64,000 nt of DNA, from positions 1,506,001-1,570,000 of the forward strand of contig NZ_CP141608.1 of NCBI RefSeq assembly GCF_035581345.1. Reading direction: 5' to 3'. The position numbers and the translations under genes were made by a program. The DNA comes from Pseudomonas sp. JQ170C. Its GTDB lineage: Bacteria; Pseudomonadota; Gammaproteobacteria; Pseudomonadales; Pseudomonadaceae. Positions 22,143-24,718 of the stretch are shown here, piece by piece. Positions within the stretch are counted from its first letter, which is position 1, and every line of letters begins with the position of its first letter. The notes beneath the pieces were generated by a model. That model ran no database searches, was not told the DNA's origin, and saw only the letters and a list, made by a program, of their open reading frames with translations.

Positions 22143-23036
22143 ATGGACTTCAGCCAACTGCGGATATTTCAGGCGGTCGCCGAGGAGGGGTCGATTACCC
22201 GCGCTGCCGAGCGTTTGCACCGGGTGCCGTCGAACCTGTCTACGCGTCTGCGCCAACTTGAGGAGCAGCTAGGGGTCGAGCTGTTTCGTCGCGAACGCCA
22301 GCGCCTGCAGTTGTCACCGGCGGGCAAGGTGCTGCTCGACTATGCCGGGCGCATGCTGGCGCTGCGCGATGAAGCCTGTGCGGCGGTGCAGGGCGGGCAG
22401 CCGGCCGGGGATTTCGCCCTGGGCACCATGTACAGCACCGCCGCGATTCACCTGCCGGCACTGCTGGCGCGCTATCACAAGGCGTATCCGGCGGTGAACC
22501 TGCAGGTGCAGGCAGCGCCCAGTGGCGAGTTGCTCGAAGGCCTGATCAGTGGTCGCCTGGATGCGGCGCTGGTGGATGGCCCGCTGGCACTGGCCGGGCT
22601 CGACGGTGTGCCGCTGTGCGATGAGACCCTGGTACTGATCACTGAGCCGGATCATCCGCCGGTGCGCAGTGCGCAGGATGTCACCGGGCGGGCGGTGTTC
22701 ACCTTTCGCCAGGGCTGCTCGTACCGCATGCGCCTGGAGGCCTGGTATGCACACGATCACGCGGCCATGGGCCGGGTGATGGAGATCGAGTCGTACCCGA
22801 GTATGTTGGCGTGCGTGATTGCGGGGGCGGGGGTGGCACTGATGGCGCAGTCGATGCTCGACAGCTTGCCCGGACGCGAGCGTGTTGCAGCGCACCGCTT
22901 GCAGGCGCCTTTTGATCAGGCCACCACCTGGCTGATGTGGCGCAAGGGGATGCGCGGGGCGAACTTGAGTGCCTGGATAGATCTGCAACAAGGGGAAACA
23001 GTTGCAGGGGCGGGCGAAGTGGCGGTCAGTGCTTGA
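22143..23036 (+). CDS. LysR-family transcriptional regulator
   Basis: Regulator of 297 residues. The N-terminal helix-turn-helix is MDFSQLRIFQAVAEEGSITR onward with AAERLHRVPSNLSTRLRQLE as recognition region; a LysR effector-binding domain follows (residues 88-290). The ATG at 22143 is chosen because LysR proteins start at MDF-type sequence; an ATG 33 nt earlier is in frame. It is divergent from an MFS transporter, its likely target. From memory it is the counterpart of PA1413. Its stop codon lies inside the Anr box of the next gene. Confidence 0.92.
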   Translation: MDFSQLRIFQAVAEEGSITRAAERLHRVPSNLSTRLRQLEEQLGVELFRRERQRLQLSPAGKVLLDYAGRMLALRDEACAAVQGGQPAGDFALGTMYSTAAIHLPALLARYHKAYPAVNLQVQAAPSGELLEGLISGRLDAALVDGPLALAGLDGVPLCDETLVLITEPDHPPVRSAQDVTGRAVFTFRQGCSYRMRLEAWYAHDHAAMGRVMEIESYPSMLACVIAGAGVALMAQSMLDSLPGRERVAAHRLQAPFDQATTWLMWRKGMRGANLSAWIDLQQGETVAGAGEVAVSA

Positions 23037-23046
23037 TCAAGATCAA
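23033..23046. promoter_or_regulatory. Anr/FNR box TTGAT-CAAG-ATCAA
   Basis: Perfect match to the Anr/FNR/Dnr consensus TTGAT-N4-ATCAA. The centre is at 23039.5, which would place a class II transcription start near 23081. It overlaps the LysR stop codon (23034-23036). It indicates induction of the following small gene under oxygen limitation. Confidence 0.88.
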
Positions 23047-23080
23047 ACTAGCCCCAACTTGTAGACCATGAGCATGCGTA

Positions 23081-23159
23081 AAGTACGACATAGGACTATG
23101 ATCTGTATGAAGCATCGCAGGATTGAATCGCCGTGCAGGCTGACCCGTAAGGGGGAGTT
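23081..23159 (+). ncRNA. Candidate SicX-like leader sRNA
   Basis: From memory, in P. aeruginosa the low-oxygen sRNA SicX derives from the 5' leader of PA1414, the apparent homologue of the next gene. Here the leader predicted from the Anr box is about 79 nt (23081-23159). No intrinsic terminator is visible inside it, so an sRNA would have to arise by processing. The boundaries are predictions from the Anr-box geometry. Confidence 0.3.
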
Positions 23160-23285
23160 ATGAGAAATAATCTGTTCAATTGGCTTCATGACCTGGCTGC
23201 GGCCCTGGGCTTGATTCCACCGCCGTTGCAGCCGGTGCCGATCCCCACCGATGAGGAGCAGCGCAAGCGCCAGCCTCGTCGCTAG
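23160..23285 (+). CDS. PA1414-like small protein, Anr-controlled
   Basis: Small protein of 41 residues, MRNNLFNWLHDLAAALGLIP followed by a proline-rich stretch and an Arg/Lys-rich end. The start follows GGGGGAG. An amphipathic N-terminal helix (residues 3-18) is likely; no full membrane helix. The order LysR, small gene, then symporter and guanidinobutyrase matches the region around PA1414 in P. aeruginosa as I recall it. A perfect Anr box upstream implies expression at low oxygen. A 21-codon upstream ORF overlaps its start. Whether the peptide itself has a function is unknown. Confidence 0.8.
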   Translation: MRNNLFNWLHDLAAALGLIPPPLQPVPIPTDEEQRKRQPRR

Positions 23286-23290
23286 CGCCT

Positions 23291-23335
23291 GGCCAGGGCC
23301 GCCGCATCAGTATGATGCGACGGCCACCGCTGGCC
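23291..23335. terminator. Long hairpin between convergent genes
   Basis: GGCCG-C-CGCATC (23297-23308) pairs with GATGCG-A-CGGCC (23314-23325), extended by outer arms GGCCAG / CTGGCC. It lies between the stops at 23285 and 23339. There is no T tract on the + strand, so it may be an mRNA-protecting or Rho-assisted end rather than a classical terminator. Confidence 0.4.
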
Positions 23336-23338
23336 TGA

Positions 23339-24718
23339 TCAGGCCAGATTCATCGCACCCGCTGTCCGGCGGGACATCAGGCTTACCACCACAAAGCTCA
23401 CCAGCGCGATCGACAGGCTGTAGTAGATTGGCGTGTTGGCATCCATCCCATCCTTGATCATGAACACCAGGGCGGTGACAAAGCCCAGGGTCATGCTGGT
23501 GATGGCGCCAGCGGTGGTTGCACGTTTCCAGTAGATCGCACCGATCAGTGGCACCAGCATCCCGCCTACCAGCAGGTTGTAGGCCAGGGTCAAGGCGCTG
23601 ATCACGTCCTCAACCACCAGGGCGATACCCAGCACGGCAATACCGGTCAGCAGGGTGAACAGGCGGTTGATCGCCAGGCTCGATTGCTTGCCGCCGCGCA
23701 GTCTTGGCAGCAGGTCTTCGGTGAGCACGGTCGAGGCTGCCAGCAGGCCGGCACTGGCCGTGGACATCATGGCCGCCAGGGCTGCAGCGATCACCAGGCC
23801 GCGGATGCCGTCAGGCAGGGCGGATTTGACGATGGCGGCAAAGGCGTTGTTGGCGTTGGCAAGGTCCGGCAGCAGCACATGGGCGGCCATACCGATCACC
23901 GCACACACCAGGCCGTAGATCACGCAGTAGATACCGGCGGTGGTACCGGCGCGCTTGGCGACTTTTTCGTCACGGGCAGTGAACACACGCTGCCAGATGT
24001 CCTGACCGATCAGGATGCCGAAGAAGTAGATCAGGAAGTAGGTGATGATGGTGTCCCAGCCGATGGTGGTCAGGCTGAAGCTCGACGCCGGCAGCTTGGC
24101 CACCAGCTCATCCCAGCCGCCCACGCGGTACAGGCAGATCGGCAGCAGGACGAACATCAGGCCTACGGTCTTGATCACGAACTGGACGATGTCGGTCAGA
24201 GTCAGCGACCACATGCCGCCGATGGTCGAGTACACCACCACCACGCCACCACCGAGCAGGATTGCAGCCCAGAACGGCATTTCAAACAGCACCTGCAGCA
24301 CGGTACCGATGGCCAGGGTCGAAGTCACGGCGATCATCAGCGCGTAAGCGAGCATGATCACGGCGCTGGCCTGACGGGCCATGGGGTTGTAGCGCTGCTC
24401 CAGCACCTGGGTCACGGTGAAGATCTTCAGGCGCAGCAGGGGTTTGGCCAGGAACAGGTTCAGGGCAATGATGCCCAGGCCCAGGGCTGCGCACAGCCAG
24501 AAGCCGGAAATGCCATGTACGTAACCCAGGCGTACGGTGCCCACGGTGGAGGCGCCGCCCAGTACCGTTGCCGCCATGGTGCCCATGTACAGGCTTGGGC
24601 CCAGGTTGCGTCCGGCCACCAGGTAATCTTCATGGGTTTTTGCCCGGCGCATGCCGTAATAGCCCAGCGCGAGCATGCCGGCCGCATAGATCAGAACAAC
24701 GAATAAGTCCAAGGCCAT
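23339..24718 (-). CDS. Sodium:solute symporter (SSS family)
   Basis: Transporter of 459 residues with about 13 helices. ATVLGGASTVG near residue 50 and the GGMWSLTLTDIVQF segment near 165 are SSS-family features (PutP/PanF fold). Sodium-driven uptake is expected. It lies 146 bp downstream of the guanidinobutyrase/agmatinase gene on the same strand, so a guanidino compound or polyamine-related substrate is plausible but unproven. Start ATG 24718 follows GGAG; the in-frame extension upstream is not conserved-looking. Confidence 0.9.
   Translation of the reverse strand: MALDLFVVLIYAAGMLALGYYGMRRAKTHEDYLVAGRNLGPSLYMGTMAATVLGGASTVGTVRLGYVHGISGFWLCAALGLGIIALNLFLAKPLLRLKIFTVTQVLEQRYNPMARQASAVIMLAYALMIAVTSTLAIGTVLQVLFEMPFWAAILLGGGVVVVYSTIGGMWSLTLTDIVQFVIKTVGLMFVLLPICLYRVGGWDELVAKLPASSFSLTTIGWDTIITYFLIYFFGILIGQDIWQRVFTARDEKVAKRAGTTAGIYCVIYGLVCAVIGMAAHVLLPDLANANNAFAAIVKSALPDGIRGLVIAAALAAMMSTASAGLLAASTVLTEDLLPRLRGGKQSSLAINRLFTLLTGIAVLGIALVVEDVISALTLAYNLLVGGMLVPLIGAIYWKRATTAGAITSMTLGFVTALVFMIKDGMDANTPIYYSLSIALVSFVVVSLMSRRTAGAMNLA

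What the first reader, a model, noticed from the sequence alone, without database searches (positions are those of the whole stretch)
23033..23285. Perfect Anr box driving a PA1414-like small gene: a SicX-type low-oxygen locus outside P. aeruginosa
TTGAT-CAAG-ATCAA (23033-23046) lies about 120 bp before a 41-codon gene flanked as PA1414 is in P. aeruginosa (LysR before; gbuA region after). From memory, SicX is an sRNA cut from the PA1414 leader that is induced at low oxygen and represses translation of ubiquinone genes. The leader here, predicted at 23081-23159, could carry a homologous RNA whose targets may differ in this obligately respiring lineage.
Basis: partly seen in the sequence, partly recalled or inferred. 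Interest (0 to 1): 0.75.

Follow-up and report, generated by a model that had tools for sequence, protein, structure and literature searches.

The report
Low-oxygen microprotein gene behind SicX RNA
A Pseudomonas close to P. vranovensis carries, behind a perfect match to the binding site of the low-oxygen switch protein Anr, a tiny conserved protein gene whose relative in P. aeruginosa overlaps the infection-regulating RNA SicX; no SicX-like RNA was detected here, so this gene likely makes a small protein when oxygen is low and SicX was probably added later in another branch.

Summary
In detail: TTGATCAAGATCAA at 23033-23046 is the only perfect Anr box in the window (0.03 expected), and the 41-codon ORF at 23160-23285 scores 71 bits against NCBIfam PA1414_fam (cut-off 28). 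The box is conserved before this gene in putida-type loci (49 of 58 without mismatch), in the genus of a P. aeruginosa-type genome (16 of 18) and in two more genera, and it encloses the LysR stop codon here and in that P. aeruginosa-type locus. SicX activates ubiUVT translation; it does not repress it. A covariance model of the SicX-type leader recovers sister-genus leaders (11 of 12) but nothing in this leader, the 15-nt SicX loop is absent, and no ubiU/ubiV was found in this genome. The likely start site is near 23109, not 23081. The wider result: PA1414 is not restricted to P. aeruginosa. It is a strongly selected 41-44 aa microprotein gene of Pseudomonadaceae (295 of 398 genomes over cut-off), and the 77-codon P. 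aeruginosa record starts 33 codons before the conserved protein. SicX is best read as a derived 5'-UTR RNA of an older Anr-controlled microprotein gene, of which this window shows the form without SicX. Expression and Anr binding are untested.

The parts
22146..23036 (+). LysR regulator (PtrR equivalog); its TGA stop codon lies inside the Anr box
   Evidence: NF047711, 468 bits, cut-off 400; 72% identical to the LysR before PA1414_fam in G181
23033..23046 (.). Anr box TTGAT-CAAG-ATCAA, perfect palindromic half-sites
   Evidence: no mismatch to TTGATN4RTCAR in 49 of 58 putida-type loci
23097..23102 (+). conserved -10-like TATGAT; predicted +1 near 23109, Anr centre about 70 bp upstream (class I position)
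   Evidence: TATGAT in 58 of 58 putida-type loci; start inferred, no start-site data
23109..23159 (+). predicted 5' leader, about 51 nt; no SicX-type structure
23144..23153 (+). CCC-GTAA-GGG mini-hairpin that would pair away part of the ribosome-binding G run (23151-23155)
   Evidence: CCC-N3-6-GGG before the ATG in 109 of 110 putida-, fluorescens- and syringae-type loci, shuffled 3-8%
23160..23285 (+). PA1414-family microprotein, 41 aa (MRNNLFNWLHDLAAALGLIPPPLQPVPIPTDEEQRKRQPRR)
   Evidence: NF041729, 71.2 bits; pN/pS 0.016 among the 9 nearest loci and 0.21 over 110 loci
23297..23325 (.). inverted repeat after the ORF; possible shared terminator with the opposing symporter gene, no T run
   Evidence: not a terminator by the scan

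Best explanation
A perfect Anr box, conserved in place across putida-type Pseudomonas and in the genus of a P. aeruginosa-type genome, stands before a strongly conserved 41-codon PA1414-family gene that is likely switched on by Anr at low oxygen and translated into a microprotein, with no SicX-type RNA detected in its leader. Shown by sequence: the box, its conservation, the coding constraint, the conserved TATGAT downstream of the box, the CCC-N-GGG element at the ribosome site, the lack of a SicX model match and of the SicX loop, and no ubiU/ubiV found. Inferred: Anr, which this genome encodes, would bind when oxygen falls and act as a class I activator on the TATGAT promoter (start near 23109), giving a short mRNA with a leader of about 51 nt. 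The protein is predicted to have a short N-terminal helix, a proline-rich stretch and a basic tail; its target is unknown, and a peripheral membrane or protein-binding role is a guess. In the P. aeruginosa genus the same gene appears to have gained a longer leader behind a class II Anr site, and that leader became SicX. The 77-codon PA1414 record begins inside that leader; the conserved protein starts at its codon 34.
For: Family: 71.2 bits here; 295 of 398 Pseudomonadaceae genomes over cut-off, 12 of 19 genera with a match at E <= 0.01; order-wide 13 of 390 over cut-off, all Pseudomonadaceae. Selection: pN/pS 0.016, 0.152, 0.052, 0.328 and 0.270 in five clades. Box: no mismatch to TTGATN4RTCAR in 49 of 58 putida-type, 16 of 18 g30, 5 of 12 g33 and 4 of 4 g38 loci; shuffles 0-1%. 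Box centre to predicted +1: 69.5-71.5 in 50 and 60.5 in 5 of the 55 putida-type loci with a box of at most one mismatch, one helical turn apart. The LysR stop lies inside the box also in G181. Anr encoded: Fnr subfamily, 318 bits. No SicX. Over-extended record: P0002, a 77-aa protein named P. aeruginosa, matches the family only over residues 34-77; GTG at -99 in 3 of 18 g30 loci, an in-frame stop between -99 and the ATG in 9 of 18.
Against: No expression, start-site or Anr-binding data were available. A TATNAT-type -10 is also kept in the fluorescens- and syringae-type loci, of which 3 of 53 have a box with at most one mismatch, so the promoter may not need Anr, or Anr control was lost there. 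No consensus sigma-70 promoter was found. The 7 perfect boxes in the genome are near the chance number. Model R1 rests on closely related sequences (effective number 1.29), so its failure here could also mean divergence beyond recognition. The published P. aeruginosa work found the short 5' RNA sufficient for the phenotype tested there, so a protein role is not shown anywhere. Helix amphipathicity is weak (better than shuffles at 0.034 here, 0.10 and 0.43 in two relatives).
Confidence: 0.66

Rival explanations
1. One reading: the leader (23081-23159) is a SicX homologue that acts in trans at low oxygen, perhaps on other mRNAs.
For: Same gene family, same Anr box overlapping the LysR stop. In 3 of 18 g30 species with the SicX-type RNA (G064, G213, G155) only two U32 proteins were found, so SicX-type RNAs may have targets beyond ubiUVT.
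Against: Model R1 finds sister-genus leaders at E 1e-6 to 6e-3 but nothing here, and no leader in 140 other sources outside g30, g33 and L149 (one of them, L071, is a run of N); loop absent; fold no better than shuffles.
Confidence: 0.08
2. A lineage-specific, unrelated small RNA is cut from this leader.
For: The leader is well conserved inside the putida-type loci; 5'-UTR-derived RNAs are known in bacteria (general knowledge).
Against: No consensus structure over 49 leaders of the window's genus except two C-G pairs at the ribosome site; conservation sits mainly in the -10 and ribosome-site elements, which promoter and translation explain.
Confidence: 0.13
3. The Anr box is incidental and the gene is driven by the TATGAT promoter under other control.
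For: A TATNAT-type -10 is kept where the box is missing; perfect boxes are near chance genome-wide.
Against: A box with at most one mismatch in 55 of 58 putida-type loci; among the 49 of them at -127 to -130, chosen for a box, RTCA is nearly invariant while spacer positions vary; boxes also in three further genera; two subclades differ by 10 bp in spacing. The published P. aeruginosa lacZ fusion depends on Anr and its motif (PMC10247376 passage).
Confidence: 0.13

Closest known systems
PA1414 / sicX locus of P. aeruginosa (PMC10247376)
   Same: Orthologous microprotein frame (P0002 residues 34-77), LysR before it, Anr box enclosing the LysR stop in the P. aeruginosa-type locus L180
   Different: There: longer leader with two hairpins and an invariant loop, box at a class II distance, ubiU in the genome. 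Here: short leader, class I-like distance, no SicX structure found, no ubiU/ubiV found
NCBIfam NF041729 PA1414 family protein
   Same: Member, 71.2 bits over residues 1-41
   Different: The model names a protein family only; it says nothing on Anr control or on SicX
FNR/Anr class I and class II promoters
   Same: Box centre about 70 bp (here), 40.5 bp (g33) and 41.5 bp (g38) from the predicted start
   Different: Start sites are predicted, not mapped; class positions are from general knowledge of FNR

Membership tests
PA1414_fam (NF041729) | HMM score over the curated cut-off, full length | tested here: met
   71.2 vs 28 bits, model 1-42 of 43
PA1414_fam (NF041729) | orthologous position after EamA, MFS and PtrR-type LysR genes | tested here: met
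   same order in the window and in L180
SicX small RNA | Anr box upstream | tested here: met
SicX small RNA | two-hairpin leader RNA as in the P. aeruginosa genus | tested here: not met
   R1 no match in the window with default filters; filters off, five weak hits around it (best 8.2 bits), none in the leader
SicX small RNA | loop GGAGAGTGGGACGCC, invariant in 18 of 18 g30 loci | tested here: not met
   19 of 229 loci have it, all g30 (L180 repeats L134); no 11-mer core with up to 3 mismatches in 23000-23300
SicX small RNA | ubiUVT target present in the genome | tested here: not met
   only two U32 proteins found: TrhP (802 bits) and a 664-aa protein at 131 bits for UbiU, cut-off 440; UbiT itself not searched
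SicX small RNA | short RNA induced at low oxygen | not testable with these tools
   needs Northern blot or RNA-seq
Anr-dependent promoter | consensus box, Anr encoded | tested here: met
Anr-dependent promoter | spacing of box to -10 as in FNR class I or II | tested here: met
   69.5 bp to the predicted +1 here, 60.5 in a subclade; the start is inferred and the class positions are recalled
Anr-dependent promoter | binding and oxygen response | not testable with these tools
   needs reporter and anr mutant

The most novel reading that the evidence does not exclude
PA1414 is a dual-function gene with the history reversed from the published view: the ancestral product is a 41-44 aa low-oxygen microprotein found across Pseudomonadaceae, and SicX is a younger RNA that grew inside its Anr-driven 5' leader in the P. 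aeruginosa genus and partly in its sister genus. The annotated PA1414 start codon lies in the RNA, so the published start-codon test probably did not remove the real protein.
Probability: 0.55. Interest if true: 0.72.

Novelty: new variant of a known kind. Interest (0 to 1): 0.52.

Why it matters
SicX is described as restricted to P. aeruginosa and as the true product of a gene annotated as protein-coding. The comparison here says otherwise: a conserved microprotein gene, Anr-linked in several clades, is widespread in Pseudomonadaceae, and SicX looks like a regulatory RNA that arose inside the leader of an existing oxygen-controlled mRNA, with an intermediate (g33) and the form without SicX (this window) available for comparison. 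It also points to a safe place to study the microprotein, since putida-type relatives carry the gene without a detectable SicX RNA.

Tried and rejected
Pairing of the leader with ubiU mRNA: RNAduplex with shuffles gave no signal even for the P. aeruginosa-type pair that should work (z 1.04 for G181; 211 of 500 shuffled loops as strong), so the method has no power here and nothing is concluded from it; the complementarity of the SicX loop to the G181 ubiU leader (GCGG..AGUGGG with CCCACUGCCGC) is noted only. Rfam: no match in the window at gathering scores. Pfam: no match to the 41-aa protein in the held copy, though the protein search lists PF28105 for its relatives. AlphaFold2: helix 2-15, mean pLDDT 73.6, pTM 0.33; too little fold to search. 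P. aeruginosa itself was not found among the 25 held g30 genomes by one exact recalled ecfX primer pattern. P0002 carries the name in its record, and G181 is taken as P. aeruginosa-type because its 77-codon frame differs from P0002 in one residue besides the start codon; its length, 6,588,339, matches PA7 from memory.

Clade labels in the counts are mine: putida-, fluorescens- and syringae-type were assigned inside the window's genus by protein motif (script); g-numbers are the tool's. Rows dropped: L016 (second, frame-broken copy in G003), L014, L015, L017-L019 and L211 (no or weak family match), identical upstream stretches (164 of 173 loci counted). L071 (run of N) is one of the 46 fluorescens-type loci and of the 53 but was left out. 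L195 (genome G190, placed in g30) has the same upstream sequence as L026; it was dropped as a duplicate and may be contamination. Not in print: searches showed no paper on PA1414/sicX relatives outside P. aeruginosa; lists were capped (20 of 40 papers, 40 of 87, most of the latter on SiCx materials). Seen of papers: PMC10247376 outline, sections 7 and 8 and passages; PMC12300143 passages (its 'PA1414' hits are PA14_14340); PMC11705926 one passage; the rest listings only.

Full report
What is there. The window holds TTGATCAAGATCAA at 23033-23046, the only perfect Anr box in 64 kb (0.03 expected) and one of 7 in the 5.94-Mb genome. The TGA stop of a PtrR-type LysR gene lies inside it. The ORF 23160-23285 encodes MRNNLFNWLHDLAAALGLIPPPLQPVPIPTDEEQRKRQPRR and is a PA1414 family protein by NCBIfam (71.2 bits, cut-off 28). 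The genome is close to P. vranovensis (98% identity in the LysR) and encodes an Fnr-subfamily Anr-type regulator (244 aa, 318 bits).

Distribution. PA1414_fam exceeds its cut-off in 295 of 398 Pseudomonadaceae genomes; 12 of 19 genera have a match at E <= 0.01. Of 390 genomes drawn from the order, 13 exceed it, all in this family. The SicX paper reports orthologues only in P. aeruginosa, from blastn with over 90% identity and coverage (PMC10247376, passages). The protein record for P. aeruginosa, P0002, is 77 aa, which fits the 234 bp of PA1414, and only its residues 34-77 match the family. In the genus of the P. aeruginosa-type genome G181 (g30), 3 of 18 loci have the GTG at -99 that this longer frame needs, and 9 of 18 have an in-frame stop between -99 and the conserved ATG. 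The conserved frame itself is under strong purifying selection (pN/pS 0.016 to 0.33 by clade). I infer that the annotated start is 33 codons too early and that the published start-codon mutation, if made at the annotated codon, left the conserved protein in place. The paper's result that the short 5' RNA suffices for the anaerobic phenotype (section 7) is not in conflict with this, but it gives no support for a protein role either.

Promoter. Over 164 distinct upstream stretches, a box without mismatch to TTGATN4RTCAR is present in 49 of 58 putida-type, 16 of 18 g30, 5 of 12 g33 and 4 of 4 g38 loci, but in 1 of 46 fluorescens-type (one of the 46 is a run of N), 0 of 7 syringae-type and 0 of 15 loci of seven other genera; 1 of 4 unassigned loci has it. 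Shuffled controls give 0-1%. With one mismatch allowed the counts are 55 of 58, 18 of 18, 8 of 12, 4 of 4, 3 of 46 and 0 of 7. In the 8 g33 loci with a box the centre lies 40.5 bp, and in the 4 g38 loci 41.5 bp, from the start predicted by a TATTTT, TATTCT or TATCCT (class II). In g30 a weaker hexamer stands at that place (TAGTCT, TAGGCT or TAAGCT in 17 of 18; L134, the P. aeruginosa-type locus, has TAAAGT one base further), and a second one lies 93.5-94.5 bp from the box. In the putida type there is no -10 at the class II place; a TATGAT found in 58 of 58 loci lies so that the box centre is 69.5-71.5 bp (50 loci) or 60.5 bp (5 loci) from +1, one turn apart. For the window this predicts +1 near 23109. 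Class labels rest on general knowledge of FNR promoters. A TATNAT-type hexamer is kept also in clades without the box, so part of the expression may be independent of Anr.

RNA. Sixteen of the 18 g30 leaders were aligned and fold into two hairpins with 24 consensus pairs, 5 of them with changes on both sides, and an invariant loop. The 15-mer GGAGAGTGGGACGCC occurs in 19 of 229 loci, all g30 (18 loci plus L180, which repeats L134). A covariance model of these leaders (R1, effective number 1.29) matches 11 of 12 g33 leaders and that of L149 (E 1e-6 to 6e-3), but neither the window nor the leaders in 140 other sources (the four weak hits are elsewhere in their loci). With filters off, 22900-23400 gives five hits: 8.2 and 4.8 bits on the hairpin after the ORF and three of 0.2 bits or less, none in the leader. 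The own genome has no hit at the locus; the best of three elsewhere is E 0.06. The window leader folds no better than shuffles (z 0.45 for 23081-23159, -0.06 for 23109-23159). What is conserved in the window's genus is CCC-N3-6-GGG at the ribosome site (109 of 110 loci in four groups), of which RNAalifold keeps only two pairs.

Target. Two U32 proteins were found in the own genome: TrhP (802 bits) and a 664-aa protein that scores 131 bits for UbiU (cut-off 440) and 36 for UbiV (cut-off 275); so no UbiU/UbiV pair was found. Relatives G015 and G007 have four U32 proteins. Three of 18 g30 species with the SicX-type RNA (G064, G213, G155) show only two, so ubiUVT may not be the only target of that RNA. 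In G181 ubiU has its own Anr box and leader; the nine other g30 ubiU genes examined have no such box within 200 nt, while eight of eight from outside g30 have one.

Neighbourhood. In G181 the order EamA, MFS (opposite strand), LysR, PA1414_fam is the same as in the window; the LysR is 72% identical and its TGA lies in the Anr box TTGATTCAGGTCAG. The genes after it differ. The box-to-ATG distance is 158 in G181 (L134) and 127 here; the extra length is in the leader, where the first SicX hairpin lies. I read this as growth of the leader in the P. aeruginosa branch, though loss in the putida branch is not excluded. The partial R1 match in g33 fits stepwise change.

Verdict. An existing protein family explains the ORF, but the comparison changes the picture of SicX: the gene is an old, in several clades Anr-linked microprotein gene, the RNA is most likely the derived part, and this window shows the version without it.

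Noticed in passing
G000:C1:2020887-2020900 (outside the window): One of the 7 perfect Anr boxes of the genome lies about 54 bp upstream of the ATG of trhP (prephenate-dependent tRNA hydroxylase, 802 bits), suggesting Anr control of tRNA hydroxylation.
   Followed up: partly
23226-23270 (protein core LQPVPIPTDEEQRKR): The family core PRLQPIPVRSDEQRR resembles the DNA polymerase I segment PNLQNIPIRSDEGRR; the weak matches (E 0.003-0.01) fall at or next to it in the seven loci read, one of which was confirmed as DNA polymerase I. May be chance.
   Followed up: partly
23297-23325: Near-perfect inverted repeat GGCCG(C/T)CGCATCA..TGATGCG(A/G)CGGCC between the microprotein gene and the opposing symporter gene; no T run.
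   Followed up: no
L195 (genome G190): A genome placed with the P. aeruginosa genus carries the vranovensis-type locus with the same upstream sequence as L026; possible contamination.
   Followed up: no
L006 and L016 (genome G003): Two near-identical copies of the locus near the two ends of one contig, the second with a broken frame; probably an unmerged contig end.
   Followed up: no
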